This document shows, piece by piece, positions 3,675 through 26,944 of a DNA stretch of 64,000 nt; the stretch's first letter is position 1; each line of letters starts with the position of its first letter. The translations under genes were made by a program, and so were the position numbers. Below the pieces are notes generated by a model. It saw nothing but the letters and a program-made list of their open reading frames with translations. It did no database searches and was not told the DNA's origin. The stretch is from positions 249,501-313,500 of the forward strand of contig BOKP01000003.1 of the NCBI GenBank assembly GCA_016861045.1, written 5' to 3'. Origin of the DNA: Actinomycetes bacterium (GTDB lineage Bacteria; Actinomycetota; Thermoleophilia; Solirubrobacterales; 70-9).

Positions 3675-4865
3675 TCAACCGCTCGCCGGAGCCGCCGCCG
3701 GCTCGGGCTCGCCGCCGGCGACCTCGAGGATGAAGTCCGCCACGCGCATCGCCTCCCGCGGCAGGGTACGGGCCGAGACGTACTCGTGCCCGGCGTCGAC
3801 GAGGCGGGCCCGCAGCTCGGGGTCGGAGGCGATCTCGTTCAGCGCCGCCGCGGCGGCGTCGGGGTCGCCCGGCGGGATGAGCAGCACCGCGTCGCCGACG
3901 GCGGCGCGGATCCCGCCGACGTCGGTCGCCACGGTGGGCAGGCCGGCGGCGAACGCCTCGAGCAGGACCTGCGGCAGACCCTCGGTCCAGGAGACGTGGA
4001 GGAACGCGTGGCTGTCGCGATAGGCGCGCGCGAGCCCCTCGCCCTGGGCGACATATCCGCGCAGGTCGGCCTGCCCGGCGACCCCGAGCCGCTCGAGCTC
4101 GGCCTCGAGCGGCTCCTCCATCGGGCCCTCTCCGCACACGGTCAGCTTCCAGCGCGCACCGTCGGCGGCGAGGACCCGCAGCGCCCGCGCGAGCAGCAGC
4201 GGGTTCTTCTCCTCCTCGAGCCGGCCGACGCTGAGCACCCGCCGCTCTCCCTCCCAGGAGCGCTCCGACGCCGCGTCCGGGCTGACGATCTCGTCGGCCT
4301 CGACCAGCGAGACGGCGATCTCGAGCAGGGCCGGGCTCCGCGAGTAGGTCGTGGCGAGCTCGGGGCCGACCACGACGACCGGGTAGATCCGCGCCAGCGC
4401 CCGGAAGGAGAGGTCGATCACGGCGGCCATCGCCCGGATCCCGGGGCGCTTCGGGTAGCGGGCGCGGACGTAGGTCGGGTAGTCCTGGCGAACGCCGAGC
4501 ACGATCCGCTTGCGACGGGCGATCGCGAGCAGCGCGAAGACGACCGCGAACGGGTTCGGCCCGAGCAGCCAGACGCAGTCGAGGTCGGCGATCCCGTTCC
4601 AGAACCGGCGCATCGCCGTGCCGAGCGACCGCAGCGCATCGCGCGGGCGGCCGAGCGTCCGGTAGTAGGGAAGCGGGACGAAGTCGACCTCCGAGCCGAG
4701 CCTGTAGCGGGCCCGCGGAGACGTCGCGGGGTCGAGCCGCCCGAAGACGGCGAGACGGGCGAAGCGCGGCGCGAGGCGCGCGATGAAGACGACGAACGCG
4801 CGCTCCCCATAGGGCTCGCCGTCGCGAACGTGGTACGGATAGTCGGTGTAGACGCCGAGCCGCAT
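3675..4865 (-). CDS. Glycosyltransferase, GT4-like
   Basis: This is a GT-B fold enzyme that adds a sugar to a lipid-linked intermediate at the inner membrane face. The start at 4865 gives MRLGVYTDYPYHVRDGEPYG, the expected first beta strand; 16 residues further upstream in frame are rich in Thr/Pro and unlike a GT N-terminus. In the C-terminal half, SVGRLEEEKNP begins the donor domain, and EGLPQVLLEAFAAG is the family's E-x7-E motif binding the nucleotide sugar. It is 396 aa. It is followed after one base by the epimerase gene and lies divergent from the Wzz/kinase gene. Sugar specificity is unknown. Confidence 0.88.
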   Translation of the reverse strand: MRLGVYTDYPYHVRDGEPYGERAFVVFIARLAPRFARLAVFGRLDPATSPRARYRLGSEVDFVPLPYYRTLGRPRDALRSLGTAMRRFWNGIADLDCVWLLGPNPFAVVFALLAIARRKRIVLGVRQDYPTYVRARYPKRPGIRAMAAVIDLSFRALARIYPVVVVGPELATTYSRSPALLEIAVSLVEADEIVSPDAASERSWEGERRVLSVGRLEEEKNPLLLARALRVLAADGARWKLTVCGEGPMEEPLEAELERLGVAGQADLRGYVAQGEGLARAYRDSHAFLHVSWTEGLPQVLLEAFAAGLPTVATDVGGIRAAVGDAVLLIPPGDPDAAAAALNEIASDPELRARLVDAGHEYVSARTLPREAMRVADFILEVAGGEPEPAAAPASG

Positions 4866-4966
4866 CGGAGTAGAGTACGTGAGCGGTGGCCGAGCGTGGG
4901 TAAGGGATTGCACCTGTCCGAGCGCCTCATACCGCCGGGCAATCGGAGCCGATAATCCCCCGACGC

Positions 4967-6529
4967 ATGCGACAGATGAACGAGAGCCCCGCCACCTGGG
5001 TCGAGCCCCCGGACGAGCAGCAGAGCCTGAGGCGGTTCCTGGAGACGGTCAGGGAGCGGCTCTGGGTCGTCGTCGCCGCGGTGGTGATCACGACCGCGGC
5101 CGCCGTCCTCTACGTGGCGACCGCGGACAAGGTCTACGAGGCGGAGGCGCAGATCCAGGTCGTGCCGATCGACGATCCCGAGGGCCAGCTCTCGTCGCTC
5201 GGGCTGATCAACCAGTCCAGCGATCCGCTGCGTGCCGTGGAGACCGCCGTGGCGCTGATCACGAGCCGGGCCGCCGCCGAGCAGGTCGCCGACGAGGGCA
5301 ACCAGGATCGCACCGCCGACGCGGTCCTGCGCGACGTCTCCGCGGAGCCGATGGCCGAGAGCGACGTCGTCGTGCTGACGGCGCGCGCGCCGACCGCGAT
5401 CGGCGCCGCCGCGCTCGCCAACAACTTCGCCGAGGCCGCCCTGAAGGTGCGCGGGGACGTGCTCCGCGAGACGATCGACGATGAGCTGCCGGTCCTGAAC
5501 GCGCGCCTGCGCGAGCTCCCCCCCGGCATCGCCCGCGACACGATGGCGGCCAAGATCGCCCAGTTCGAGGCGCTGAAGCTGTCCGGGGATCCGACGCTGC
5601 GGATCATCGACCCGGCAGTCCCGCCCGGCGGCCCCGTCTCGCCGCGGCCCCTGCTCAGCATCATCGCCGGGATCCTCGCCGGGCTCGTGCTCGGAGTCGG
5701 GGCGGTGTTCGCACTGCGCATGCTGGACCCGCTGATCCGCCGCGAGGAGCAGGTCCGGGCCCGCTACCGGCTTCCGATCCTCGCCCGCGTCCCGCAGGAG
5801 CGGGGCGGGCCCAAGGACCGGCCGCTGGTCTGGAGCAACCTCGTCGGCGGCTCCGTCGAGGCCTACCGCACCCTGCGCGCGGTCCTCGCGGGCTCGGCCT
5901 CGCGCTCGCCGCGCGCCCCCTCGATCCTGATCTCGAGCCCCGGGCCCGGCGAGGGCAAGACGACGTCGGCGATATCGCTCGCGGCCTCGCTCGCCCTCAC
6001 CGACAAGCGGGTGATCCTGATCGAGGCCGACCTCCGGCGCCCGGCGATCGGCAAGGCCTTCAACATCAGCGTCTCGAGCGGCATCGTCAGCGTCCTCGCC
6101 GGCGAGGCGAAGCTCGAGGAATGCCTCGTCACCGCGCCGATCGGAGAGGGCCATCTCGGCCTCCTGCTGGCCGAGGAGTCGGGCGGCGCCGGAGCCGAGC
6201 TGCTGGCGCTGCCGAGCGCCCTCGACCTGCTCGACCAGGCGACGAAGCTCGCCGACGTCGTCGTCGTCGACTCCCCTCCGCTCGCGACCGTCGTCGACGC
6301 GCTGCCGCTGGCCCGCGCGGTCGACGAGGTCGTGATCGCGCTCAAGCTCGGCACCAGCCGCATTGACCGGACCCAGGAGCTGGCCGAGCTCCTCGCGGAC
6401 GCCGGGATCACCCCGGCGGGCTTCGTCCTGATCGGCGTCCCCGGCCACTCGAAGCCGTACTACGGCGATCCGAACCGGGAGCGGATCGTCGAGATGCATC
6501 CGACCCGGCCGGCCGCCAGCGCCGGCTGA
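4967..6529 (+). CDS. Chain-length determinant / tyrosine-kinase fusion protein (Wzc/CpsCD type)
   Basis: This inner-membrane protein controls exopolysaccharide chain length and assembly. The N-terminal part is a Wzz domain: a transmembrane helix (about residues 24-44, VVVAAVVITTAAAVLYVATA), an extracytoplasmic region, and a second helix (about 225-248, LLSIIAGILAGLVLGVGAVFAL). The cytoplasmic part is a BY-kinase-like ATPase with Walker A SPGPGEGKTTSA, Walker A' ILIEADLRRPAI and Walker B VVVVDSPPL. The C-terminus has only a YY pair (KPYYGDP), not a tyrosine-rich cluster, so classical autophosphorylation may be reduced. The O-antigen polymerase gene follows 8 bp downstream, forming a Wzz-Wzy unit. 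Confidence 0.92.
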   Translation: MRQMNESPATWVEPPDEQQSLRRFLETVRERLWVVVAAVVITTAAAVLYVATADKVYEAEAQIQVVPIDDPEGQLSSLGLINQSSDPLRAVETAVALITSRAAAEQVADEGNQDRTADAVLRDVSAEPMAESDVVVLTARAPTAIGAAALANNFAEAALKVRGDVLRETIDDELPVLNARLRELPPGIARDTMAAKIAQFEALKLSGDPTLRIIDPAVPPGGPVSPRPLLSIIAGILAGLVLGVGAVFALRMLDPLIRREEQVRARYRLPILARVPQERGGPKDRPLVWSNLVGGSVEAYRTLRAVLAGSASRSPRAPSILISSPGPGEGKTTSAISLAASLALTDKRVILIEADLRRPAIGKAFNISVSSGIVSVLAGEAKLEECLVTAPIGEGHLGLLLAEESGGAGAELLALPSALDLLDQATKLADVVVVDSPPLATVVDALPLARAVDEVVIALKLGTSRIDRTQELAELLADAGITPAGFVLIGVPGHSKPYYGDPNRERIVEMHPTRPAASAG

Positions 6530-6537
6530 GCCCGGGG

Positions 6538-7998
6538 ATGACGGCGGCAGCGCGGCCTCCGCTCGCGTGGCTCGCGGCGCTGCTCGCCGTCGGCCTCTTC
6601 ACCGCGGTCGGCTTCGTCGCCGGCGCCGAGCCGAAATTCGGCATCATCGCGGCGCTGGCGCTGGTCTACGCCCTGGTCGTCTTCACCAACCTCTCGGCCG
6701 CCCTGACGATCCTCGTGGTCATCGTCTTCGCGGAGTCGACGCCGCTGGCCGGCCCGGCCCTGAGCGCGACGAAGATCGCCGGCCTGCTGCTGACCCTCGG
6801 CTGGCTGGCCCGGATCGCGACCGACGGCGGCGATCGCCGGGCGACGGTGCTGCTCAGCGCCCACCCCGCCCTCTCCTACCTGCTCGCGCTGTTCATCGGC
6901 TGGATCGCGCTCAGCATCATCTGGGCGCAGGACGTCGCGCTCGCGCTCGACCGGGCGACGGTGTTCCTGCTCGTCGCGATCCTCTACCTGATCGTCTTCA
7001 CCGCCGTCCGCACCCGCCGGCAGGCGATCTGGGTACTCGGCGCGTTCGTGCTCGGGACGGCGATCACCGCCGCCTACGGCCTCATCCTCCGTCCCGACCC
7101 GAACAACCAGGCCGCCGAGCGGCTGGCCTCGACGATCGCGGACCCGAACTTCCTCGCCGCCATCCTCGTCGCCGGGATCGTCCTCGCCGGCGCCGGCTTC
7201 TTCGCCGCCCGCGGCCACCGCCTGCTCCAGCTCGGGGCCCTGACCGCGGTGGCGCTCTCCCTTGCCGCCTTCGTCCTCACCGGCTCTCGGGGCGGCATCG
7301 TCGGCCTCGGCGTCGCGCTGCTCGCGGCGGTCGCGTTCGGCGGTCGCTGGCGCCTGCGGATCGCGTTCGCGGCGATCACGGTGACCACCCTCGCGGTCGG
7401 CTACTACACGATGCTCGCGCCGCCGCTGTTGAAGGACCGGATCATGACCGCGACCGAGGGCGAGGTGAGCCGGGCCGACACGCGCTCGACGATCTGGACC
7501 GTGGCCTGGCGGATGGCGATGGACCACCCGATCAGCGGGGTCGGGGTCGGCAACTTCGAGGCCCGCTCGATCGATTACATCATCGAGCCCGGGACCACCT
7601 ACCGCACAGACCGCGTGATCGACAACCCCGGCGCCGCCCACAACAGCTACCTCGGCCCGCTGGCGGAGATCGGCATCGTCGGCCTCGCGCTGCTGCTGTC
7701 GATCCTCGCCTTCTCGCTGACCTGCGTCGTGCGGGCGGTCCGCCGCTTCGAGCGCAACCGCGACGGGCCGCTGGAGGTGCTCTCGCGAGGCCTGTTCATC
7801 GCGCTCATCGGGGTCCTCACCTCGGCGTTCTTCATCAGCGCCGAGTCGAACAAGTTCATCTGGCTGATGCTGGCGATGGGGCCGGCGCTGCTCGCCGTGG
7901 CCGAGAGCGGGGCTCCCGCCGCGCCTCCGGCCCGGTCCCCCGGCTACCGCCCGGCGCCGAGCTCGGCCGCGGTCAGACCGCTGGCGAGGCCCTCGTAG
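6538..7998 (+). CDS. O-antigen polymerase/ligase family membrane protein (Wzy/WaaL)
   Basis: This is a polytopic membrane protein of 486 aa with about 11-12 hydrophobic helices. Between the later helices lies the large periplasmic loop typical of the family, with a conserved signature: GVGVGNFEARS, then NPGAAHNSYLGPLAEIGIVGL. The H-N-S-Y-L motif is the Wzy_C hallmark. It should polymerise lipid-linked repeat units or ligate the polymer to an acceptor. It follows the Wzz/kinase gene by 8 bp. Its 3' end overlaps the convergent glycosyltransferase by 55 bp. A second family member is encoded at 22866-24917. Confidence 0.9.
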   Translation: MTAAARPPLAWLAALLAVGLFTAVGFVAGAEPKFGIIAALALVYALVVFTNLSAALTILVVIVFAESTPLAGPALSATKIAGLLLTLGWLARIATDGGDRRATVLLSAHPALSYLLALFIGWIALSIIWAQDVALALDRATVFLLVAILYLIVFTAVRTRRQAIWVLGAFVLGTAITAAYGLILRPDPNNQAAERLASTIADPNFLAAILVAGIVLAGAGFFAARGHRLLQLGALTAVALSLAAFVLTGSRGGIVGLGVALLAAVAFGGRWRLRIAFAAITVTTLAVGYYTMLAPPLLKDRIMTATEGEVSRADTRSTIWTVAWRMAMDHPISGVGVGNFEARSIDYIIEPGTTYRTDRVIDNPGAAHNSYLGPLAEIGIVGLALLLSILAFSLTCVVRAVRRFERNRDGPLEVLSRGLFIALIGVLTSAFFISAESNKFIWLMLAMGPALLAVAESGAPAAPPARSPGYRPAPSSAAVRPLARPS

Positions 7999-9128
7999 AT
8001 CCGCTCGACGGCGCGGACCGTGACGCCGATGTCGAACTCGGCGAGCTGCCGCTCGCGGGCGCCCGAGCCGAGCCGGGCCGCGAGGTCGCGGTCGCCGAGG
8101 AGGCGGGCGACCGCCGCGGCGAGCGCGGCGGGATCGCGGGGCTCGACGAGCATTCCCTCGGAGCCGTCCGCGACGATGTCGGGGATCCCTCCGACCCGGG
8201 TGGCGACGATCGGCAGCGCCGCCTGCATGTACTCGAGGACCGACAGCGGCGTCCCCTCGAAGTCGGACGAGCAGGCGGCGACGTCGAACTCCCCGATCAG
8301 GTCGCGGACGTCGTCGCGGTGACCGAGCATCACGACGGTCGCGGCGAGGCCGAGCTCCGCGATCCGGCGCTCGAGCGCCGGCCGCTCCGGCCCCTCGCCG
8401 ACGATCAGCACCCTGAGACCGTCGATGCGCCGGGCGAGGATCGCGGCGGCGTCGATCAGCACGTCGAGCGCCTTCTGCGGGCGCAGCGCGCAGACGGTCC
8501 CGACGATCGGCGCCTCCCTCCCGATCCCGAGCTCGCGCCTGACGTCGACGTCTCCGCGGGGCGGTGGCTCGGGGATCCCGTTGGGGACGAAGATCACCTT
8601 GGCCGGATCGATCCGCTCGACCTCGATCATCCTCCTGCGGTCGAGCTCGGAGACGGCGAGGAAGGCGTCGGCACGGGGGGCGATCAGGCGGCGGTCGAGG
8701 AGCTTCCGCAGCGGCTGCCCCTCGAAGGACCAGGTGTGCTCGTGGGCGACGATCGCCGGCGTCCGCGCCAGCGTCCCGAGAACGGCGGCCCAGACGTTGG
8801 AGCCGATCTTGTGTCCGTGCAGGACGTCGATCCCGTCGCGAAGCAGCCGCCACAGCGGCCGCCAGCTCAGGAGGTCGTAGGTGCCGCGCCGGCGCAGGGG
8901 AAGGAAGCCGACGCCGGCCCGCTCCAGCCCCGCCAGGGCGCCCGCCTCGGCGGCGGCACGCGCCCGCTCCTCGGACCAGCGCGAGACGCACAGCGTCGGC
9001 TCGAAGCGGTCGGGATCGAGCCGGAGCACGACCTCGCGGGCGAGGCGCTCGGCGCCGCCGGCGAGCCCGATCCCGTCGACGAGCGTCACCACCCGCAGCC
9101 TGCGCCCCTGTCCGTCGGCGTCGTGCAT
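7944..9128 (-). CDS. Glycosyltransferase, GT4-like
   Basis: This 394-aa GT-B glycosyltransferase shows an N-terminal RVVTLVDGIGLAGGAERL (acceptor domain, glycine-rich loop), HGHKIGSNVW, and a C-terminal donor domain with IVGEGPERPALE and the E-x7-E motif EGTPLSVLEYMQA. It is soluble or peripherally attached to the membrane. The start is ATG 9128, only 14 bp from the divergently transcribed C5-epimerase start at 9143, so the two may share a compact promoter region. It probably adds one sugar of the repeat unit. Donor and linkage are not predictable. Confidence 0.9.
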   Translation of the reverse strand: MHDADGQGRRLRVVTLVDGIGLAGGAERLAREVVLRLDPDRFEPTLCVSRWSEERARAAAEAGALAGLERAGVGFLPLRRRGTYDLLSWRPLWRLLRDGIDVLHGHKIGSNVWAAVLGTLARTPAIVAHEHTWSFEGQPLRKLLDRRLIAPRADAFLAVSELDRRRMIEVERIDPAKVIFVPNGIPEPPPRGDVDVRRELGIGREAPIVGTVCALRPQKALDVLIDAAAILARRIDGLRVLIVGEGPERPALERRIAELGLAATVVMLGHRDDVRDLIGEFDVAACSSDFEGTPLSVLEYMQAALPIVATRVGGIPDIVADGSEGMLVEPRDPAALAAAVARLLGDRDLAARLGSGARERQLAEFDIGVTVRAVERIYEGLASGLTAAELGAGR

Positions 9129-9142
9129 CTAGGATCCGCAGC

Positions 9143-10150
9143 ATGATGGCTCCCGCCGACGACGGCTCGCCGCCGGTGCGCGACGTCCCGATGCCGCCCG
9201 GGCGCCAGAGCGCCTTCGGCACGGCCGGCGATTTCGTCGCGCCGCCCGGCTCCCACGTCATCCCCGACGACCCTGCCGGCTACTACATCGACCTGCGGGC
9301 GAAGGCGGACACGCCGGATACTCCGCCGATCTGGTGGCCGCGGATGTCTACCGAGCCGCGGGTCGTGATCACCCAGTGGGGCCTGGGGTGCTGGGAGCAC
9401 TACCTTGCCGGCGACGGCGAGGAGTGGCTCGCGGCGGCGCGCTGGGCGGCCGACCGCCTGCTCGAGCAGCAGCACGCCGACGGGCCGCGGGCCGGCGGCT
9501 GGACGCACGACTACGCGTTCCGGCACACCTACCGCATCGATCCGCCCTGGATGTCGGGCATGGCCCAGGGCGAGGCGGCGAGCCTGCTCGTGCGGATCCA
9601 CCGCGAGACCGGCGCCGAGCGCTACGCGAGCGCGGCGGTGGCGGCGCTCGGGCCGATGCGGGTGCCGGTCACCGCCGGCGGCGTCGGCGGCAGCATCGAC
9701 GGCGGCTGGATCCCGGAGGAGTACCCGACCGACCCCCCCTCCCACGTGCTCAACGGCGCGATCTTCGGCGTCTGGGGGGCCTACGACGTGGCCGCCGCGC
9801 TCGGCGACGCCGACGCCGGCTCCCTCGCCCGCGAGGGGATCGAGACGGTCGCGTCGGCGCTGCACCGCTACGACACCGGATCGTGGTCGCGCTACGACCT
9901 CTTCCCGCATCCGATCGCCAACGTCGCGAGCCCGATGTACCACCGCCTGCACATCAGCCAGCTCCGGGCGATGTCGGCGATCAGCGACGACCCCCGCTTC
10001 CCCGCGACCGCCGAGCGGTTCGAGCGCTACGCCGATTCCAGGCCGGCCCTCGCCCGCGCCTACGCCCACAAGGTCGGCTTCCGGCTGCTCGTCCCCCGCA
10101 ACCGCTGGCTCGCCCATCGCCTTCCCTGGGCCCACCGGTCGGGCGCATGA
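9143..10150 (+). CDS. D-glucuronyl C5-epimerase family protein
   Basis: This 335-aa protein matches the C-terminal catalytic region of heparosan/heparan glucuronyl C5-epimerases, which flip D-glucuronate to L-iduronate in the polymer. Motifs in family order: WMSGMAQGEAASLLVR, EEYPTDPPSHVLNG (Tyr near 194), YDTGSWSRYDL (Tyrs near 243 and 251) and YHRLHISQLRAMS (Tyr near 266). The animal enzyme has near-identical blocks (EEYPTTPSS.VLNG, YDTGS...YDL, YHTTHINQL), including its active-site tyrosines; this comparison is from memory. The start is ATG 9143 (or 9146). There is no signal peptide, so it may act on lipid-linked units in the cytoplasm. Its stop overlaps the deacetylase start (ATGA). Confidence 0.9.
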   Translation: MMAPADDGSPPVRDVPMPPGRQSAFGTAGDFVAPPGSHVIPDDPAGYYIDLRAKADTPDTPPIWWPRMSTEPRVVITQWGLGCWEHYLAGDGEEWLAAARWAADRLLEQQHADGPRAGGWTHDYAFRHTYRIDPPWMSGMAQGEAASLLVRIHRETGAERYASAAVAALGPMRVPVTAGGVGGSIDGGWIPEEYPTDPPSHVLNGAIFGVWGAYDVAAALGDADAGSLAREGIETVASALHRYDTGSWSRYDLFPHPIANVASPMYHRLHISQLRAMSAISDDPRFPATAERFERYADSRPALARAYAHKVGFRLLVPRNRWLAHRLPWAHRSGA

Positions 10151-10905
10151 GCGACGTCCTCGCGCTCTGCTTCCACGCCGTCAGCCGCGACTGGCCGGCG
10201 GGGTTCTCGGTCCCGGCCGAGCAGATCGAGCGCCACGTCGCCGGCCTGCTCGACCGCGGCTACGTCGGCGCGACGTTCCGCGATGCCGTCCTGGACCCGC
10301 CCGCCGAGCGCACGCTCGCGGTCACCTTCGACGACGCCTACCGGTCCGTGTACGACAACGCCCGCCCCGTGCTGAGCTCGCTCGGGGTGCCCGCCACCGT
10401 CTTCGTGCCGACGGCCCTCGTCGGCGGCGAGCAGCCGATGGCCTGGCCCGGCACCGACCGCTGGCTCGGCTCCCCCTACGAGGGCGAGCTGACGCCGATG
10501 TCCTGGGACGAGCTCGGGGAGCTCGCCGAGCTCGGCTGGGAGCTCGGGTCGCACACGCGGACCCACCCTCGCCTGCCGACGATCGCCGCGACCGCGCTGC
10601 GCGAGGAGCTCGAGGGCTCGCGAGCCGACCTCGAGGAGCGGCTCGGAGCCCGCTGCGAGACGATCGCCTACCCCTACGGCGACTATGACGCCGCGGTGGT
10701 CGCCGCCGCCCGGCGGGCCGGGTTCGTCGCCGGTGGCGCCCTGGCCGGGCGGGTGCGCAGGCCGCAGGCGATGCTCTGGCCGCGGGTCGGGATCTACGGC
10801 AAGGACGGCGCCGTCCGCTTCCGCGTCAAGGCATCGCCGGCGATCCGCCGGCTGCGCGCCTCGCACCTCTGGCGGGCCCGCTTCCTGCTGCGACGGCGGC
10901 GGTGA
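10147..10905 (+). CDS. Polysaccharide deacetylase (NodB/CE4 family)
   Basis: The family hydrolyses N- or O-acetyl groups from sugars. Motif 1 is TFDDAY (family TFDDG; the catalytic base and metal Asp are kept and the final Gly is replaced by Ala). Motif 2 is SHTRTHPRL (the HxxxH zinc ligands), and AYPYGDYD gives the next conserved block. The 252-aa length is normal for a single domain and no signal peptide is evident. The start ATG 10147 overlaps the C5-epimerase stop by 4 bp, and the flippase start overlaps its own stop, so the three are translationally coupled. By analogy with heparan sulfate synthesis it could N-deacetylate the hexosamine before N-sulfation. That role is inferred. Confidence 0.9.
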   Translation: MSDVLALCFHAVSRDWPAGFSVPAEQIERHVAGLLDRGYVGATFRDAVLDPPAERTLAVTFDDAYRSVYDNARPVLSSLGVPATVFVPTALVGGEQPMAWPGTDRWLGSPYEGELTPMSWDELGELAELGWELGSHTRTHPRLPTIAATALREELEGSRADLEERLGARCETIAYPYGDYDAAVVAAARRAGFVAGGALAGRVRRPQAMLWPRVGIYGKDGAVRFRVKASPAIRRLRASHLWRARFLLRRRR

Positions 10906-12467
10906 GCGACGGGGGACGGCGCCGGGGCGGGCTGACCGGCACCGTGATCAGGGGGGTCAGCCTGGCGGGCGGCGGGTTCCTGCTCGGCCGGGCGATCACG
11001 CTCGTCACCTTCGTCGTCCTCGCCCGCCTGGTCACGCCCGAGGAGCTCGGCCAGTACACGTCGGGGTCGGTGCTCGTCGCCTTCGGCGTGATGCTGGCCG
11101 GGTCGGGAATGCTCGCGGCGCTGATCCACCGCGAGGACCGGCTCGACGAGGCGGCGTCCACCGCGACGGTGGCGACGGTCGGCGCCGGGGTCGTCCTCGC
11201 GCTGATCGGCCTCGCGAGCGCGCCGCTGATCGGCACCTTCTTCGGCAGTGCGACGGTCGGGGAGGTCGCCGCGGCGAGCGCCGGGATCCTCCTCCTACAG
11301 TCGGCGAGAACGGTCCCGAACGCGATCCTGCAACGGCGCTTCTCGTTCATGCGCCGGCTGATCGTCGAGCCGGTGGCGATGCTCGCCTTCGGCGTCGCAT
11401 CGATCGTCGCCACCTCGCAGGGCCTCGGCGTCTGGGGCCTCGTGATCGGGATGTACGCGCAGGCGGCCGCTGACGTCCTCCTCTCGTGGGGGCTGGTTCG
11501 CTGGCGCCCGCGGCTGCGACAGGTGTCGTTCGGGATGTGGCGGGAGCTGGTCGGCTACGGGCGCCACGTGCTGGCGGGCAGCACGATCCGCCGTTTCGGC
11601 GATCAGGTGCCGGTCCTCGTCAGCGGCGGCATGCTGAACCAGAGCTCGGTCGGGCAGCTCCAGTACGCGAACCGGATCGTCACGACCCCCTACTCGCTGC
11701 TGGTCGCCGGAATCGCCTACGTCATCTTCCCGGCGTTCGCGAGGATCGCCCGGGACCGTTCCCGCTTCCGGCCCGCCCTGCTGCAGACGCTGCGGTGGTC
11801 GTCGGTGGTCGCGATGCCGATGGGGCTGATCCTGGCGCCGCTCGGAGAGCCGCTGGCGATCATCGCCTTCGGGGAGCGCTGGAGCCTCGCGGGCGAGGTC
11901 ACCGCCGCGATCTGCCTCTACATCCCGGCCCAGGCGATCGCCGCCGAGATCGGCGAGGGGTTCAAGGCGGCGGGCATCCCGGCGAAGCGGACCCGCGTCA
12001 ACGCGATCGCGGTCGCTGCCGGCGGGCTGACGATGCTCGCGCTTACGCCCGCGCTCGGCCTGTTCGGCGTCGGCATCGGCATCTCGGTGGACGCCGTCGC
12101 CGGCGCGACGGTGGCGATCGCGCTCGCGAGGGGCGCGATGGAGATCCCCGTGCGCACGGTCCTCGCCGCCGTCGCCCCCGCGGCCGCCGCGGCGCTGCTG
12201 ATGATCGCCGTCCTGTTCCCGGTCGAGAACCTCCTCGTCCATGCCGCCGACCGCGGCACGGCGCTCGGGCTCGTCCTCCTGGCCGCCGAGGGGCTCCTCG
12301 GCGTCGCCATCTACCTGCTCGGCCTGCGGATCCTGGCGCCGGGCCTGGGAACCCAGCTCCGAGACCTGCTGCGCGAGGCGCGACGCCGGCCGGGAAGGGG
12401 CGCGGCGGGACGGGGGGCCGACGAGGAGCTGGTCGAGGAGGAGGGCGAGGGGCAGCTGCCCGGATGA
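10902..12467 (+). CDS. Polysaccharide flippase (Wzx, MATE-like superfamily)
   Basis: This 521-aa polytopic membrane protein has about 12-14 hydrophobic helices. The N-terminus, GTVIRGVSLAGGGFLLGRAITL followed by LVTPEELGQY, is typical of the polysaccharide-transport flippases that move undecaprenyl-linked repeat units across the membrane. The start is GTG 10902, overlapping the deacetylase stop (GTGA). Together with the Wzz-kinase and Wzy proteins encoded upstream and the initiating transferase downstream it makes a complete Wzx/Wzy pathway. The C-terminus is charged and low-complexity (a run of Glu before the end). It converges with the sulfotransferase operon 22 bp away. Confidence 0.92.
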   Translation: MSDGGRRRGGLTGTVIRGVSLAGGGFLLGRAITLVTFVVLARLVTPEELGQYTSGSVLVAFGVMLAGSGMLAALIHREDRLDEAASTATVATVGAGVVLALIGLASAPLIGTFFGSATVGEVAAASAGILLLQSARTVPNAILQRRFSFMRRLIVEPVAMLAFGVASIVATSQGLGVWGLVIGMYAQAAADVLLSWGLVRWRPRLRQVSFGMWRELVGYGRHVLAGSTIRRFGDQVPVLVSGGMLNQSSVGQLQYANRIVTTPYSLLVAGIAYVIFPAFARIARDRSRFRPALLQTLRWSSVVAMPMGLILAPLGEPLAIIAFGERWSLAGEVTAAICLYIPAQAIAAEIGEGFKAAGIPAKRTRVNAIAVAAGGLTMLALTPALGLFGVGIGISVDAVAGATVAIALARGAMEIPVRTVLAAVAPAAAAALLMIAVLFPVENLLVHAADRGTALGLVLLAAEGLLGVAIYLLGLRILAPGLGTQLRDLLREARRRPGRGAAGRGADEELVEEEGEGQLPG

Positions 12468-12489: not shown

Positions 12490-13395
12490 TCAGCCGAGCC
12501 AGCGCCGAACGTCGAGGCCGAGTAGCCCGTCGAGCTCGCCCGCCTCGAGCGCGGCCAGCTCCGCGAGCTCGGACCGGACGTCCTCGGCGAGCGGGGCCCG
12601 CCGGCCGACGCTCGTGTTCCAGCGGATCATCGCCCTCGCGACCCCGCGCCGCGCCCGCTCGCTCGTGACCCGGTGCAGGGCCGGCCGCAGCCACTCCGGA
12701 GGGCGCCTGACGAAGCGGCGCATCGCCCGGCTTCGGACCCGCGTGTTCGGGTTGACGATCTCGATGGTCGGCTCGAAGCCGGGGTCGACGCCGAGAAACC
12801 GGCAGGCAGCCCTGTAGGCGCCGAGGGTGTCGTCGCGGAAGTCGTCGTAGACGATCACGTGCAGGCGCTCGCGGCCGAAGACATCGAGGTAGCGGCGGAG
12901 CTGCTCGCCGTAGTGAACCGCCGAGCGGTACGAGCGCGGCGGGAATCCGGCGGGCGCGCCCGACCGCTCGCGCTCGGGATCGAGCCGGAAGGCCGCAGCG
13001 AAGTCCTCGACCGGCTCGATGCCGACGAACACGAACTGGGAATGCAGGGACGGAAGCATCTCGACCGGGCTCCGCAGCATCACGATGATCCTCGCCTCCG
13101 GCTCGAACTCCGCGATCTCGGCGGCCGCGCTGGCCGAGTACAGGTGCCAGACCGACGCCTCGCCCCGCAGGCGGGCATCCTGCAGACCCGCGAACAGCTC
13201 GATGAAGCGCTCCCGGCCCATCGGCTTCTGGCCGCGCCTCATCGCCATCCGCTCGGCCAGGTCGGTGGCGAACACGTGCGTCTCCTTGCGCGGGCACATG
13301 CCGATCTCGGGATGCTGGCCGAGGTAGTCGGCCATCGCGGTCGTCCCGCACTTGGGCGCGCCGACGATGAAGAAGTCCGGCCCCTTCAGGCTCAC
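12490..13395 (-). CDS. PAPS-dependent sulfotransferase (ST1)
   Basis: This enzyme transfers sulfate from PAPS to a hydroxyl or amine of a carbohydrate. The 5'-phosphosulfate-binding loop is FFIVGAPKCGTTAM near residue 8, with the catalytic-type Lys in PKCGTT. The 3'-phosphate-binding segment is IIVMLRSPVEMLPSLHSQF near residue 103, with Arg and Ser. Its 301-aa length fits the Sulfotransfer_1/3 families related to heparan sulfotransferases. There is no signal or membrane segment, so it is cytoplasmic. It is last in a five-gene minus-strand operon, and its start overlaps the ST2 stop by 4 bp. Substrate position (N-, 2-O, 6-O) cannot be told. Confidence 0.9.
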   Translation of the reverse strand: MSLKGPDFFIVGAPKCGTTAMADYLGQHPEIGMCPRKETHVFATDLAERMAMRRGQKPMGRERFIELFAGLQDARLRGEASVWHLYSASAAAEIAEFEPEARIIVMLRSPVEMLPSLHSQFVFVGIEPVEDFAAAFRLDPERERSGAPAGFPPRSYRSAVHYGEQLRRYLDVFGRERLHVIVYDDFRDDTLGAYRAACRFLGVDPGFEPTIEIVNPNTRVRSRAMRRFVRRPPEWLRPALHRVTSERARRGVARAMIRWNTSVGRRAPLAEDVRSELAELAALEAGELDGLLGLDVRRWLG

Positions 13396-14378
13396 CGCCC
13401 GGCACCCGCGAACGGTCGTGAGAGCGGCGTGCGCCCGACCGGGCGGCTCCCGACCCGCTCGCCGTAGCCGAGCGCCGCGAGCTCCGCCCCGATCAGCTCG
13501 TCGAGCAGCTCTCGCTCGGGCCCGCTCGCAGCCGCCGCGCCGCGATTCATGTCGCGGACCTCGACTCGGGTGTCGAGGAACTCATGGGGCTCGGCGGCCG
13601 CCGGCAGCTCGCAGAAGCTCGTCATCTCGTCGATCGTCGCGTGCGGGTCCGCCACGAAGTCCTCGTAGCGTATCTCCGCGTAGCGGTCGGGCACGCATCG
13701 CTTCGCCTCCGCGCGCGCCCCCCGCACGAGCTCCTGCCACTGCAGGGCGGCGAGCCCGAGCGGCGGCTCGCCGAGCTCGCGCCATCGATCGAGATCCGCC
13801 TCGCCGAGCACGCCCTCCCACGCGACCGACCGCTCGCGCCACGTGCCCGCCCAGAAGTCCACCTTCATCAGCGACCGTGCCACCGCCCTGCCGTCGCGGA
13901 TCACGTTCACGAAGAGCGCATCGGGGAAGGCGTCGGCGAGGAAGCCGATCCTGGCCGGCCCGGTGATCTTGGTCGCGAACCGGTCCTTGCCCTGATAGCG
14001 GATGAGCTTGCCGACCAGGGTGCGAAGCCCGGCCCGCTGCTCGGGGGTCGGCCGCTCGCCGACGAGCGCCTCGTAGACGAACCGCCTGCCCGCGTAGCGC
14101 TCCCAGATCGCGTAGCCCTCGACCGGGCCGATCCGGGCCTTCTCCCGCCAGCGCCGGGCCGAGTCGGACCTCATGATCGACTTCCGCGCCCACGGGGCGG
14201 CGTCGGCGAGCCGGGCCAGGACCGTGACCGACGGCCAGCCGGGAAGGCGGTTCAGGTGCTGCGTGAACCAGGCGAGATCCGGGCGCGCCGCGAACGTGTT
14301 GAAGATGACGGTCGTCCCGCTCCTCGGAGCGCCGACCACGAAGATCGGGCGCGAGGGCGGGTCCGGCCCTACCGGCAT
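13392..14378 (-). CDS. PAPS-dependent sulfotransferase (ST2)
   Basis: This 328-aa protein has a 5'-PSB loop FVVGAPRSGTTVIFNTF near residue 13 and a 3'-PB segment LFVNVIRDGRAVARSLMKVDFW in the middle. The PRSGTT form (Arg in place of Lys) is common in bacterial sulfotransferases. It has a longer central insertion than ST1 and is clearly not a recent duplicate of it. Its 5' end overlaps the ST3 gene by 10 bp and its 3' end overlaps ST1 by 4 bp, so the three are co-translated. It is a probable cytoplasmic carbohydrate sulfotransferase; its substrate is unknown. Confidence 0.88.
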   Translation of the reverse strand: MPVGPDPPSRPIFVVGAPRSGTTVIFNTFAARPDLAWFTQHLNRLPGWPSVTVLARLADAAPWARKSIMRSDSARRWREKARIGPVEGYAIWERYAGRRFVYEALVGERPTPEQRAGLRTLVGKLIRYQGKDRFATKITGPARIGFLADAFPDALFVNVIRDGRAVARSLMKVDFWAGTWRERSVAWEGVLGEADLDRWRELGEPPLGLAALQWQELVRGARAEAKRCVPDRYAEIRYEDFVADPHATIDEMTSFCELPAAAEPHEFLDTRVEVRDMNRGAAAASGPERELLDELIGAELAALGYGERVGSRPVGRTPLSRPFAGAGR

Positions 14379-15166
14379 GAGGGCCAGAGCTCCAGGTCGA
14401 TCTCGGGCACCGCCCGCGCCAGCGCCTCCGCGTCCTCGGCGAGGCTCGCCCGCATCTGCTCCGCGAGGGCGGCCGGGAGCTCGTGCGCCCGAGGACGGGC
14501 GGCGTCGGGCCGCCGCTCGATCGCGCCCGATCGCGGCGCGTCGAGGCCGAGGAACCGGAACGTGCGCTCGAGCTCGGCCTCGGGCTCGCGCACGCAGCGC
14601 TCGTACTGGAGGACGAGGACCCGGCCGCGGTCGAAGCGGCCCACGATCCGCTCGAGCTGCTCCGCGTAGCGGCTGCGCTGCAGCGCGTCACCCCTGATCA
14701 TCAGGCGCAGGTAGTCCCCGTTCGTCCGTCCCAGCTCCCGTCCCAGCACCCGCGTCTCGTGGGCCATGCCGGACAGGAATCGCTCCCAGGGATCCCGGAG
14801 GATGACCAGGACCTTGGCGTCGGGCGCGGAGGCGCTCAACAGCCGCGGGGTCCACGGGTCGTACATGTAGCGGGGGGTCCACTCCCCGGTCAGCGCGCCG
14901 TCGGGGCGCGGGAACAGGCGCCGGTACCCGGCTGCGTCGGCCGCCGTGAACTCGCGTCGCCAGAACCGATCGAAGTAGTGCCGCTCCTTGCCCCAGGGGG
15001 CGACGACGTCGGGGTGGCCCGTCAGCTGGCGAAACCACCACGAGGTCCCCGAGCGCTGCGCGCCGACCCCGACGAAGTCGGGAGCGCCCTCGCGCCAGCC
15101 CTTCGGAGCCTTCACCGGCAGGCCGAGGCGCCGGCGGACGCGCACCCGCGTGTCGATCCCGGCCAT
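14369..15166 (-). CDS. PAPS-dependent sulfotransferase (ST3), heparan-ST-like
   Basis: The start ATG 15166 shares its A with the upstream beta-helix stop (TGATG), which decides the start over an in-frame one 30 bp earlier. The 265-aa product has the 5'-PSB loop FVGVGAQRSGTSWWFRQL near residue 28, followed by KERHYFDR, and the 3'-PB VLVILRDPWERFLSGMAHE. The combination of RSGTSWW, KExHYFD and RDPxERxxSxM resembles heparan N-/3-O-sulfotransferases (KEVHFFD...RNPxxRxxSxY) more than ST1 and ST2 do. That makes it the best candidate for modifying a glycosaminoglycan-like chain. This is an inference from motifs. Confidence 0.88.
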   Translation of the reverse strand: MAGIDTRVRVRRRLGLPVKAPKGWREGAPDFVGVGAQRSGTSWWFRQLTGHPDVVAPWGKERHYFDRFWRREFTAADAAGYRRLFPRPDGALTGEWTPRYMYDPWTPRLLSASAPDAKVLVILRDPWERFLSGMAHETRVLGRELGRTNGDYLRLMIRGDALQRSRYAEQLERIVGRFDRGRVLVLQYERCVREPEAELERTFRFLGLDAPRSGAIERRPDAARPRAHELPAALAEQMRASLAEDAEALARAVPEIDLELWPSCR

Positions 15167-16176
15167 CAGCCGCGGGCCGCTCCCCCGGCCCCGCACGGAA
15201 AGGCGCCGACGAGCGCGGCGGCGTCCACCGTCGGAGCCTCGTAGCCGGGCCGAGCGACGGCGTTGCCGAACGTCAGCACCCCCTGCATCGACGGCTCCAG
15301 GCCGCTCCCCGGCGGAGAGCCCCCGTACTCGTCGGCCGTCGTCGCCAGGCAGTTGCCGATGGCGACGTTTCCCTCCCCGATCGGTCCCTGCCAGTGCGAC
15401 TCGATGTTGAAGCGGTCTCCGGAGCCGGTGATGATGTTGCCGGCGACCAGGTTGCGGTCGGACGAGCTGCTCCCGTCGCCCCCGAAGATCAGGCCGGAGC
15501 CGTTGCCGTCGATGACGTTGCCGACCACGACCGAGCCGTCGGCGTCGGGGTAGAGCTGGATCCCGCGGTCGGCGTTGCCGTAGATCAGGTTGCCGCTGAC
15601 GAGCGCACCCCGCGCGCCGGCGAGATAGATCCCGTGGTGGTGGTTGGTGGCCGGGAGGAGGCCGCAGTCGTGGATGACGTTTCCCTCGATCACCACCCGG
15701 CGCGGGGGAGGCTCCCCCCCGTAGTCGTTGACGCTGACGCAGATCGCCGTGTGCTCGTTGCTGATCTCGTTGCCGCGAAGGACCACGTCATCGGCATTGA
15801 TCGTCGGGCTGGGCTTGGCCTCCGGGTTGCGTCCGTCGAGGATCAGGTCCTGGACCACGGCCCGATCGCCGCCCGCATCGATCCAGAGGCGGCCGCTGAG
15901 CGTGGCGCTCTCACCCGGATAGCTGCTCAACAGGACCCCGGGAGCGCCGATCCTCGCGACGCCGGCGGCAACGTGGATGCCCTCGCGCAGGCAGCCGACC
16001 TCGCCCGGCCCCAGGCCGGCCACGAACGCGACCACGTCTCCACCGGCCGCGAGCGTGCGGTCGCAGCCGAGGGCGGCGTCGCCGGTCGGCGCGGCGGTCG
16101 CCTCCGGGGCCGCCGCGGCTCCGAGGACGGCGGCGGCGAGCGCGACGGGGAGCAGACGTTGCGGGCGGCGTCCCAT
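15166..16176 (-). CDS. Secreted right-handed parallel beta-helix protein (no RTX tail)
   Basis: The start ATG 16176 gives a signal peptide: MGRRPQRLLPVALAAAV, a hydrophobic core, then an A-rich cleavage region. The mature part is a parallel beta-helix with repeated N/G/V-rich rungs (VVLRGNEISN, VVIEGNVIHDCG, ALVSGNLIYGNADRG, VVVGNVIDGNG, LVAGNIITGSG). Motifs shared with its upstream paralogue are PATNHHHGIY, RGIQLYPDADGS and ESHWQGPIG. The fold is used by polysaccharide lyases, alginate-type C5-epimerases and glycan hydrolases. It is 336 aa. It sits in an operon before three sulfotransferases, so an extracellular action on the sulfated polymer is likely. The catalytic type is not determinable from sequence. 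Confidence 0.85.
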   Translation of the reverse strand: MGRRPQRLLPVALAAAVLGAAAAPEATAAPTGDAALGCDRTLAAGGDVVAFVAGLGPGEVGCLREGIHVAAGVARIGAPGVLLSSYPGESATLSGRLWIDAGGDRAVVQDLILDGRNPEAKPSPTINADDVVLRGNEISNEHTAICVSVNDYGGEPPPRRVVIEGNVIHDCGLLPATNHHHGIYLAGARGALVSGNLIYGNADRGIQLYPDADGSVVVGNVIDGNGSGLIFGGDGSSSSDRNLVAGNIITGSGDRFNIESHWQGPIGEGNVAIGNCLATTADEYGGSPPGSGLEPSMQGVLTFGNAVARPGYEAPTVDAAALVGAFPCGAGGAARG

Positions 16177-17603: not shown

Positions 17604-17770
17604 ATCCGATCCTTCCGTCCGGGCGGGGAGCCCTGGTCCCAGTTGGCTATCGACGGCTGCGGAGCGCCCCGAAGCGGCCCGGGCCGATCCGGACGGACGT
17701 CCACCGCCGCCCGGCCCGTGGGCGTCCCGCCGCCCGCCCCTGCCCCGCGCCCCCTGTTAGCTTGCGGTCG

Positions 17771-18655
17771 ATGGAGGCCAGCGGAACGGGGCAGCGCCCG
17801 GTGATCGTCGTCGGCACCGGCCGTTGCGGCTCGACGTTCCTGCACCGCCTGCTGGCCTTCCACGAGCAGCTCGGGTGGCTGTCGACGTTCAACGAGACGT
17901 TTCCTCACCGCCACCGGCTCTCGGCCTTCTCACGGCTCTACGCCGCGCCGCTGCCGCAGCGGGTCAAGGAGATGAAGGCGTTCCCGAAGCCGTTCGAGGC
18001 CTACCGCTTCTGGGAGACCTACCTGCCGGGCTTCTCGCGGCGGGAGAGCCCCCAGGTCCCGGAGGAGATCGACGCGGCCTGGATCGGGCCGGTGCGCGCG
18101 GCGACGCGGCGCGTCCTCCGCTTCCACGGTCGCGAGCGGCTCCTCGTCAAGGTGACCGGCTGGGCGCGGATCGCGTACTTCGACCGGATCTACCCCGACG
18201 CCCGGTTCGTCTTCCTCCAGCGCGACCCGCGCTCGGTCGTGAGCTCCTGGATCAAGGCCGGCTGGCTCGACGTGACCAGCCCACCCGACGGACCGAGCTG
18301 GCAGTGGGGACCCGTGCCGGACGAGTACATGGCCGCCTGGAGCGAGCTCGGCGGCGGCCCGCAGCTCTCGACGGCGCTGAAGATCCGCCTCGACCTCGAC
18401 GACATCGCCGCCAACTCCGCCCTCCTCCCCGGTCGCGTCCACGAGCTCACCTACGAGGACCTGATCACCGAGCCGGAGCCGGCGCTGCGGGGGCTGTGCC
18501 GCTTCGCGGAGCTGCCCTGGACGCCCGCGTTCGAGCGCAGGATCGCGGCGACCGAGTTCTACGACTCGACACGGACCTGGGAGAAGCACCTGAGCGCCGC
18601 CGAGGGCGACCGGGTGCTCGAGTTCATGCAACGCACCGACCGCGCGCCGGCTTGA
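17771..18655 (+). CDS. PAPS-dependent sulfotransferase (ST4)
   Basis: This 294-aa protein starts at ATG 17771 (an in-frame TTG 9 bp earlier is less likely). The 5'-PSB loop is VIVVGTGRCGSTFLHRLL near residue 11 and the 3'-PB segment is FVFLQRDPRSVVSSWIKAGW. No membrane segments are seen. The gene is divergent from the five-gene beta-helix/sulfotransferase operon across a 167-bp gap. It overlaps the next gene by 4 bp (TTGA), so it is translated together with the DGCHRL protein. It is a probable carbohydrate sulfotransferase acting with ST1-ST3; its own target is unknown. Confidence 0.88.
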   Translation: MEASGTGQRPVIVVGTGRCGSTFLHRLLAFHEQLGWLSTFNETFPHRHRLSAFSRLYAAPLPQRVKEMKAFPKPFEAYRFWETYLPGFSRRESPQVPEEIDAAWIGPVRAATRRVLRFHGRERLLVKVTGWARIAYFDRIYPDARFVFLQRDPRSVVSSWIKAGWLDVTSPPDGPSWQWGPVPDEYMAAWSELGGGPQLSTALKIRLDLDDIAANSALLPGRVHELTYEDLITEPEPALRGLCRFAELPWTPAFERRIAATEFYDSTRTWEKHLSAAEGDRVLEFMQRTDRAPA

Positions 18656-19404: not shown

Positions 19405-20967
19405 TCAGGAGCGTGGCTTGCCGAAGTCCCGGAGCAGGGCCGGGACGGTCATCAGGATGATCTTGAAGTCGAGCCACGGCGACCGGTTCTCGATGTAGTA
19501 GTTGTCCCACTCGACCCGATCGGCGATCGACGTGTTGCCGCGCAGGCCCTGGACCTGCGACCAGCCCGTGATCCCCGACTTGACCCGGTGGCGATCGGCG
19601 TAGCGGTAGACGGACTCGTCGAAGAGCTGGACGTAGCTCGGTCGCTCGGGGCGCGGTCCGACGAGCGACATGTCGCCGCGGAGGACGTTGAAGAGCTGCG
19701 GCAGCTCGTCGATCGAGCTGCGGCGCAGGAACGTGCCGGTGCGGGTCCGCCGGTCAACCCCCTCGACGCCGCCGGGGGCCACGTCACGAGTCACGGCGTC
19801 CGACTCCGTCTCGGCATGCTCGTGCGGCTCGGGCTCGCGCATGGTCCTGAACTTGAGGACGTCGAACTCCTTGCCGTCGAGGCCGACCCGGGCCTGCCGG
19901 AACAGCACCGGACGGCCGAGGGTGAGGAGCGTCGCCAGGCCCGCTAGCAGCAGCAGCGGCGAGGTGATCAGGATCGCGAACGCGGCGAAGACCCGGTCGA
20001 ACCCGTACTTGAGGGCGTACTGCCAGCCCTGCGGGTCGCTCGCGCGCACGGAGACGATCGGGATGCCCCCGATCCGCTCCAGCTCGAGGTCGTCGGTCAC
20101 GCCCTCGAAGAGGCGCGGCAGGACCGATACGGTGACGCCGCTCGCCTGGCAGCGTCGCAACAGGTCGAGCTCCGCCTGGTGGGAGCTCGTCGAGAAGCTG
20201 ACGACGACGTGCGAGACCCGGAGCTCCTCGATCGCGTCCTCGAGCCCCGGCCCGAACAGGCGCTCTCCGCCGCGCTCGACCGGACTGGAGCCGAGCACGG
20301 GAACCGGGGGCGCGTCGCCCTCGCGGTCCTCGAGCGGATCGTCGTCGATGAACGCGACCGGCCGCAGCCCGAACTCGGGGCGGTCGAGGAGCCGGCTGGC
20401 GAACTGCCTGCCGACCGCCCCGGCGCCGATGATCAGCGCCCGCTCGCCGACGACGCCCTCACGGCGCCTGCGCATCTCGACGATGTGGCGACCGCCCCGG
20501 GCCGCGATCACGTAGGTCGACGCGAAGATCCAGGCCCGGGCCGCCTGCGCGGCGGCGTCCGGGTTGTCGAAGACCAGCACCCGCCCGAAGGTCATGCACA
20601 TCGCGACGATCGCCGTCGCGGCGACGATCGACCGCGCGTCCTCGAGGAAGTGGCTCGCGAACGAGAACCGGTAGAGGCCGAAGTAGACGAGGACGGCGAG
20701 GACGAGCACGCAGAAGACCGCCAGCGAGAAGATGTCGGTTCTGAGGCTCGCCGCGGGGGCGCTGATCACCGATGCCAGCGCCGCGAGCGCCAGCATCGCC
20801 GCGTCGATGCCGAAGCTCGTCGCGTCGAACAGCGGCGGCCCGGCGCTCGGAGCACGACGCGGCCTGCGCACGCCGATCAGGTCGGCCGGGCGCCGTCGCG
20901 CGGGCGCGTGGTTCGGCGGGACGTCGGCGACCCCCCGTACGTCGATCGATGAGCTGCTCCTGGCCAT
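19405..20967 (-). CDS. Exopolysaccharide initiating polyprenyl-phosphate sugar phosphotransferase
   Basis: This WbaP/WcaJ-type enzyme places the first sugar phosphate on undecaprenyl phosphate. Start ATG 20967 is preferred: AGGA lies about 9 nt upstream, while the ATG 42 bp earlier lacks a ribosome site. The 520-aa product has a basic N-terminus, four hydrophobic helices (to about residue 155), an NAD-binding-like cytoplasmic domain (ALIIGAGAVGRQFA), a fifth helix, and the catalytic C-terminal domain with VLFRQARVGLDGKEFDVLKFRTM, SIDELPQLFNVLRGDMSLVGPRP and SGITGWSQVQG. This enzyme defines the Wzx/Wzy pathway here. It is divergent from the glycosyltransferase at 21107. Confidence 0.95.
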   Translation of the reverse strand: MARSSSSIDVRGVADVPPNHAPARRRPADLIGVRRPRRAPSAGPPLFDATSFGIDAAMLALAALASVISAPAASLRTDIFSLAVFCVLVLAVLVYFGLYRFSFASHFLEDARSIVAATAIVAMCMTFGRVLVFDNPDAAAQAARAWIFASTYVIAARGGRHIVEMRRRREGVVGERALIIGAGAVGRQFASRLLDRPEFGLRPVAFIDDDPLEDREGDAPPVPVLGSSPVERGGERLFGPGLEDAIEELRVSHVVVSFSTSSHQAELDLLRRCQASGVTVSVLPRLFEGVTDDLELERIGGIPIVSVRASDPQGWQYALKYGFDRVFAAFAILITSPLLLLAGLATLLTLGRPVLFRQARVGLDGKEFDVLKFRTMREPEPHEHAETESDAVTRDVAPGGVEGVDRRTRTGTFLRRSSIDELPQLFNVLRGDMSLVGPRPERPSYVQLFDESVYRYADRHRVKSGITGWSQVQGLRGNTSIADRVEWDNYYIENRSPWLDFKIILMTVPALLRDFGKPRS

Positions 20968-21052
20968 CCGTGTCGTCCTATCGGCGGCTCGTCCCGGTTC
21001 CTCAATCATTGAAAGGCGGTGATCCCGAGCTGTTCCTTCCTCGCGCTCCCGC

Positions 21053-26866: not shown

Positions 26867-26944
26867 GGGATCAGGGTAGCGCAAGCACGGGGCGCGGACG
26901 CCGGTTGCCGCCGCGTCCGGGCCGGGCCGGGATTCGGTTCCGGC

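What the first reader, a model, noticed from the sequence alone, without database searches (positions are those of the whole stretch)
9143..12467. C5-epimerase, deacetylase and flippase genes translationally coupled
The three genes overlap by 4 bp each (ATGA, GTGA). None of epimerase or deacetylase has an evident signal peptide, so both may act on the cytoplasmic lipid-linked repeat before the flippase exports it. That order of modification before export would differ from the Golgi pathway, where polymer is modified after synthesis.
Basis: partly seen in the sequence, partly recalled or inferred. Interest (0 to 1): 0.7.

Follow-up and report, generated by a model that had tools for sequence, protein, structure and literature searches.

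The report
Uronate epimerase–deacetylase pair beside a flippase
An uncultured actinobacterium carries a short cousin of the animal heparan-sulfate epimerase, joined by overlapping genes (and in one relative by outright fusion) to a sugar deacetylase and next to a glycan flippase, which suggests that the sugar chain's building block is remodelled inside the cell before export rather than after the chain is made, as in animals.

Summary
Confirmed: three + strand genes, epimerase 9143-10150, CE4 deacetylase 10147-10905 and MOP flippase 10902-12467, overlap by ATGA and GTGA. Such overlaps are ordinary here (4 of 27 same-strand neighbours), but this one is conserved: ATGA/GTGA joins epimerase to deacetylase in six further Thermoleophilia genomes, and in a seventh the two are one 612-aa open frame. 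The epimerase is a GlcE-type catalytic domain: all five human catalytic residues kept, AlphaFold model Z 32.5 to human GlcE against 15 for the next family. Neither enzyme has a signal peptide, unlike nine longer PF06662 paralogues of the same order. The surroundings hold Wzz, Wzy, an initiating transferase and GT4 enzymes; signal-less GlcE-type epimerases sit in such clusters in many phyla. Best reading: cytoplasmic deacetylation and C5-epimerisation of the lipid-linked repeat before the flip. Location is well supported; the lipid-linked substrate is inferred. The order is not unprecedented: archaeal Agl32, with a different active site, does this to a lipid-linked tetrasaccharide. The sulfotransferases nearby are not conserved with the pair, so 'heparan-sulfate-like' is not established. 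New variant of a known kind.

The parts
9143..10150 (+). short GlcE-type D-glucuronyl C5-epimerase, 335 aa, no signal peptide; catalytic E193, Y194, N204, Y251, Y266 (human E499, Y500, N510, Y560, Y578)
10147..10905 (+). CE4 (NodB-fold) polysaccharide/oligosaccharide N-deacetylase, 252 aa, no signal peptide; TFDD from residue 60, SHTRTH from 135
10902..12467 (+). MOP-family flippase (Wzx/TuaB-like), 521 aa, about 10 hydrophobic segments by a simple hydropathy count
10147..10150 (+). ATGA stop-start overlap, epimerase to deacetylase; ATGA or GTGA in six other genomes
10902..10905 (+). GTGA stop-start overlap, deacetylase to flippase; conserved in two congeneric genomes
9130..9135 (+). TAGGAT, -10-like element 7 bases before ATG 9143; possible leaderless promoter of the three-gene operon, same motif in L056 and L057
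   Evidence: function inferred
7944..9128 (-). GT4 glycosyltransferase divergent from the operon, conserved beside the epimerase in most Thermoleophilia loci
6538..7998 (+). Wzy-like polymerase (Wzy_C)
4967..6529 (+). Wzz-type chain-length protein with tyrosine-kinase-like ATPase domain
3675..4913 (-). GT4 glycosyltransferase
12490..13395 (-). sulfotransferase 1
13392..14378 (-). sulfotransferase 2
14369..15196 (-). sulfotransferase 3
17762..18655 (+). sulfotransferase 4
19405..21009 (-). initiating phosphoglycosyltransferase (Bac_transf)
21107..22321 (+). GT4 glycosyltransferase

Best explanation
The three genes are the modify-and-flip step of a Wzx/Wzy polysaccharide pathway in a Solirubrobacterales bacterium. 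GT4 enzymes build a repeat with glucuronate and an N-acetylhexosamine on undecaprenyl diphosphate at the inner face of the membrane (inferred). The CE4 enzyme removes an N-acetyl group and the GlcE-type epimerase turns the GlcA of the same oligosaccharide into IdoA, both in the cytoplasm (location supported, substrate inferred). The MOP flippase then exports the finished repeat and Wzy polymerises it outside (family assignment shown, step inferred). Overlap and, in one relative, fusion keep the two enzymes together in amount and place.
For: Coordinates and families. All five GlcE catalytic residues are present (residues named in PMC13308652); the E499, N510 and Y560 equivalents are invariant in 72 relatives, the Y578 equivalent is kept in 71 and the Y500 equivalent in 57. 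Model pLDDT 90, Z 32.5 to human GlcE over 268 residues, next family 15.4. CE4 metal and base motifs intact. No signal peptide or membrane segment in the window enzymes or in the epimerase of 12 of 13 close orthologues, the exception lying far upstream of any plausible start. Epimerase-deacetylase overlap in seven genomes counting the window, fusion in an eighth whose junction has no stop in any frame and no start-stop tetranucleotide. Wzz, Wzy, PGT and GT4 genes around and around most orthologues. Over all phyla the short epimerase lies directly beside a same-strand GT4, flippase or deacetylase gene in 49 of 72 loci. UDP-glucose dehydrogenase family in the genome. Precedents: Agl32 on a lipid-linked glycan; HfsH predicted to act on lipid-linked or polymerised substrate.
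Against: No activity, glycan structure or localisation is known. Human GlcE needs about six sugars and an N-sulfated neighbour; a lipid-linked repeat may be shorter, and the sulfotransferases are not conserved with the pair. Some orthologous epimerases have no deacetylase in the stretch examined (L035, L061), so the pair is not obligatory. The only tested bacterial homologue, from Bermanella, acts on polymeric substrate in vitro. The flippase is next to the pair in only four of the loci seen.
Confidence: 0.6

Rival explanations
1. Both enzymes act in the cytoplasm, but on a polymer assembled there (as heparosan of E. coli K5 is) or on free oligosaccharides, and not on the lipid-linked repeat.
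For: GlcE-type enzymes tested so far act on polymer. Cytoplasmic location is all the sequence really shows.
Against: The cluster is Wzx/Wzy with Wzz and an initiating PGT, in which polymerisation is outside the membrane; no synthase or capsule ABC exporter was recognised among the cluster genes scanned.
Confidence: 0.15
2. The enzymes reach the cell surface by a route without a recognisable signal and modify polymer after synthesis, like AlgG/AlgE, IcaB or PgaB.
For: Known bacterial C5-epimerases of alginate and deacetylases of PNAG work outside the cytoplasm. Nearest NCBIfam hits of the deacetylase include IcaB and PgaB, though far below cut-off.
Against: No signal in window or close orthologues, whereas nine PF06662 paralogues of the same order do carry N-terminal hydrophobic segments, so the order exports such proteins by the usual route when needed. 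Seven of those nine have lost the catalytic Glu.
Confidence: 0.07
3. Epimerase and deacetylase share an operon but act on different sugars or different glycans; the overlap is only gene packing.
For: 4-bp overlaps are common in the window; some orthologous loci have one gene without the other next to it.
Against: Overlap kept in seven genomes of at least two GTDB families, and a true fusion in an eighth.
Confidence: 0.1
4. The PF06662 protein here is not a glucuronate epimerase but uses the same alpha/alpha barrel on another uronate or linkage.
For: Only one bacterial member is reported as assayed; specificity cannot be read from catalytic residues.
Against: All five GlcE catalytic residues and 29-36% identity to GlcE over the domain.
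Confidence: 0.08

Closest known systems
Eukaryotic GlcE (heparan sulfate D-glucuronyl C5-epimerase; PDB 6HZZ, 4PW2)
   Same: Catalytic alpha/alpha domain, five catalytic residues, PF06662
   Different: 335 aa with no Golgi anchor; the matched 268 residues map onto GlcE 156-616 with a large part of GlcE unmatched; C-terminal extension beyond GlcE's end (residues 306-335); lies in a Wzx/Wzy cluster
Bermanella marisrubri C5-epimerase RED65_08024 (Raedts 2013)
   Same: Bacterial GlcE-type enzyme, the only one reported as assayed (as cited)
   Different: Acts in vitro on desulfated heparin/HS polymer; its native target unknown; sequence not compared here
Halobacterium salinarum Agl32
   Same: C5-epimerisation of GlcA in a lipid-linked glycan before membrane crossing
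   Different: Archaeal N-glycosylation; Agl32 lacks GlcE catalytic residues, the window enzyme has them
Caulobacter HfsH
   Same: CE4 deacetylase of a wzy pathway with predicted lipid-linked or polymer substrate
   Different: No epimerase partner reported; match to the HfsH model is well below NCBIfam cut-off (36.7 of 400 bits)
Heparan sulfate pathway (NDST, GlcE, O-sulfotransferases)
   Same: Deacetylation and C5-epimerisation, with sulfotransferases nearby in this genus
   Different: Polymer-level in the Golgi; CE4 enzyme instead of NDST; sulfotransferases not conserved with the pair

Membership tests
PF06662 GlcE-type C5-epimerase catalytic domain | Pfam match above curated cut-off | tested here: met
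   148.5 bits against 23.3
PF06662 GlcE-type C5-epimerase catalytic domain | catalytic residues equivalent to human E499, Y500, N510, Y560, Y578 | tested here: met
   E193, Y194, N204, Y251, Y266
PF06662 GlcE-type C5-epimerase catalytic domain | fold of the GlcE alpha domain | tested here: met
   Z 32.5, rmsd 2.9 over 268 residues; next family Z 15.4
PF06662 GlcE-type C5-epimerase catalytic domain | GlcA to IdoA activity | not testable with these tools
   needs an assay
Golgi heparan-sulfate GlcE | N-terminal membrane anchor and lumenal location | tested here: not met
   no hydrophobic N-terminal segment
CE4 polysaccharide deacetylases | NodB domain (PF01522) and Asp-Asp/His-His motifs | tested here: met
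   88.1 bits against 23.1; TFDD, SHTRTH
Wzx/Wzy polysaccharide pathway | MOP flippase, Wzy polymerase, Wzz and initiating PGT in one cluster | tested here: met
Heparan sulfate biosynthetic pathway | N-sulfation of deacetylated glucosamine coupled to epimerisation | tested here: inconclusive
   four sulfotransferases nearby, N-sulfation unassigned, none found in most orthologous loci
Heparan sulfate biosynthetic pathway | modification of finished polymer | not testable with these tools
   needs biochemistry
Agl32 family | active site without GlcE catalytic residues | tested here: not met
   all five are present (Agl32 property from PMC13308652); the Agl32 sequence itself was not compared
Secreted polysaccharide deacetylases IcaB/PgaB | secretion signal | tested here: not met
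   protein begins at the first strand of the NodB domain, no N-terminal hydrophobic leader

The most novel reading that the evidence does not exclude
Short, signal-less GlcE-type epimerases form a broad bacterial class that makes IdoA in lipid-linked repeats before flipping in Wzx/Wzy pathways of many phyla; in Thermoleophilia the class is joined to a CE4 deacetylase to give an IdoA next to a free amino sugar, without need for N-sulfation.
Probability: 0.4. Interest if true: 0.7.

Novelty: new variant of a known kind. Interest (0 to 1): 0.5.

Why it matters
Iduronate in animals arises in finished polymer, and the one tested bacterial GlcE-type enzyme has no known native target. A compact enzyme tied to a deacetylase and a flippase gives a concrete, testable case of heparan-type chemistry done before export, a natural fused catalyst that might make IdoA-containing oligosaccharides, and a view of the GlcE catalytic domain without its Golgi additions.

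Tried and rejected
Heparan-sulfate-like reading tested by looking for sulfotransferases in orthologous loci: found only in congeners and L060. Searched for papers on PF06662 and on iduronic acid with Wzy: none seen describing this arrangement in the library held, which lacks most subscription journals, including Raedts 2011 and 2013 and Debarnot 2019. Considered an upstream start giving the epimerase a signal: the in-frame extension from 8564 is Arg-rich antisense of the GT4 gene, and TAGGAT before ATG 9143 argues for that start. Considered an assembly frameshift as cause of the L058 fusion: no stop or start-stop tetranucleotide in any frame at the junction. A CE4 motif regex missed divergent deacetylases (L059, L073 fail the regex but match the HMM), so the HMM was used for the Thermoleophilia counts; for other phyla absence of CE4 rests on weak tests. 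AlphaFold model of the L058 fusion (mean pLDDT 88, pTM 0.67) gave two domains with a low-confidence linker; no claim is made on their relative placement.

Full report
What is there. The window (about 74% GC) lies in a 2.7 Mb genome; the closest named relatives are Conexibacter and Solirubrobacterales MAGs. At 9143-12467 on the + strand three genes run head to tail: a C5-epimerase, a CE4 deacetylase and a MOP flippase, with ATGA at 10147-10150 and GTGA at 10902-10905.

Is the overlap more than chance? By itself, no: 4 of 27 same-strand neighbours in the window overlap by exactly 4 bp. The weight comes from conservation. Among relatives found in whole genomes and in a scan of one genome per species, the epimerase is directly followed by the deacetylase with ATGA or GTGA in L056, L057, L062, L063, L064 and L065; the first four alone span two GTDB families. 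In L058 the two are one open frame of 612 aa; the junction DNA has no stop in any of the three frames and no start-stop tetranucleotide, so a single lost base would not explain it. The deacetylase-flippase overlap is kept in the two congeners (L056, L057), and the flippase follows the deacetylase with a gap in L062.

What the epimerase is. PF06662 at 148.5 bits. Alignment to human and zebrafish GlcE puts E193, Y194, N204, Y251, Y266 on human E499, Y500, N510, Y560, Y578, the residues named as catalytic in PMC13308652. The 72-sequence alignment keeps E193, N204 and Y251 in all, Y266 in 71 and Y194 in 57 (mostly Phe otherwise). The AlphaFold model (pLDDT 90) matches human GlcE at Z 32.5 over 268 residues, rmsd 2.9; the next family, cellobiose 2-epimerases, is at 15.4. 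The match spans GlcE 156-616 while the protein has only 335 residues, so a large part of GlcE is missing; that this is the beta-hairpin and barrel part is an inference from the published domain description. Residues 306-335 extend beyond GlcE's C-terminus.

Where the enzymes work. Neither enzyme shows an N-terminal hydrophobic leader. For the epimerase the same holds in 12 of the 13 closest orthologues (L056-L068); the flagged one (L059) has its segment some 300 residues upstream of the domain, beyond any plausible start. By contrast nine longer PF06662 proteins of the same order (L043-L051) all have N-terminal hydrophobic segments, several plainly signal-peptide-like, and seven of the nine have replaced the catalytic Glu by Ile, Leu, Met or Gln. 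So the order has an exported branch, mostly without the GlcE glutamate, and a non-exported branch with an intact site. The simple hydropathy measure stands in for a signal-peptide predictor, which was not available.

Pathway. Around the operon lie Wzz with a kinase-type ATPase (4967), Wzy (6538), GT4 genes (3675, 7944, 21107) and an initiating PGT (19405), and most of these recur beside the orthologues. Over all phyla the short epimerase is adjacent, on the same strand, to a GT4, flippase or deacetylase gene in 49 of 72 loci, and 51 of 72 loci hold a flippase, Wzy, PGT or Wzz gene (HMMs grown from the window proteins, so these are lower bounds). In Actinopolymorpha rutila (L077) the GT4 gene overlaps the epimerase by 4 bp. 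The genome has UDP-glucose-dehydrogenase-family proteins and APS kinase. In Wzx/Wzy pathways the repeat is assembled on its lipid in the cytoplasm before flipping (established knowledge, restated in PMC6372794), so cytoplasmic enzymes in such a cluster most simply act on the lipid-linked repeat. This last step is inference.

What is known. [quoted passage not shown] Agl32 lacks the GlcE catalytic residues, so the present enzyme would be a different solution to the same order of events. Caulobacter HfsH is predicted to act on lipid-linked or polymerised substrates. The one assayed bacterial GlcE homologue worked on polymer in vitro and its own target is unknown.

Sulfation. Four sulfotransferases lie near the operon and three of them recur in congeners, but no sulfotransferase was found in the other Thermoleophilia loci with the pair (stretches of 12-21 kb). 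The conserved unit is epimerase plus deacetylase; if GlcE's need for an N-sulfated neighbour does not hold here, a free amine may serve instead, which is a testable guess.

Verdict.

Noticed in passing
window 9130-9143: TAGGAT 7 bases before ATG 9143, kept in L056 and L057, with TAnnnT-like stretches in some other relatives: possible leaderless promoter, with only 14 bases between divergent start codons (9128 and 9143).
   Followed up: partly
window 10031-10150 and 10771-10905: Basic C-terminal tails on epimerase (net +7 in last 40 residues) and deacetylase (net +13 in last 45), with conserved patterns (FRLLVPRN..LA.RLPW; FR.K.SPA.RRLR); the epimerase tail lies beyond GlcE's C-terminus. Perhaps contact with the membrane or the lipid diphosphate.
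   Followed up: partly
L043-L051: PF06662 paralogues with N-terminal hydrophobic segments in related genomes, seven of nine without the catalytic Glu: probably a different activity under the same Pfam name.
   Followed up: partly
L058:9896-11734: Natural in-frame epimerase-deacetylase fusion of 612 aa.
   Followed up: yes
window 22866-24917: Second Wzy_C protein with a TPR tail in the same cluster, besides Wzy at 6538.
   Followed up: no
window 16233-17360: NosD/beta-helix protein with an RTX-like repeat, recurring near the epimerase in many Thermoleophilia loci; might act on the same polysaccharide outside the cell.
   Followed up: no
window 24986-26884: Galactose-oxidase-like protein with an N-terminal hydrophobic segment next to the polysaccharide cluster.
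   Followed up: no
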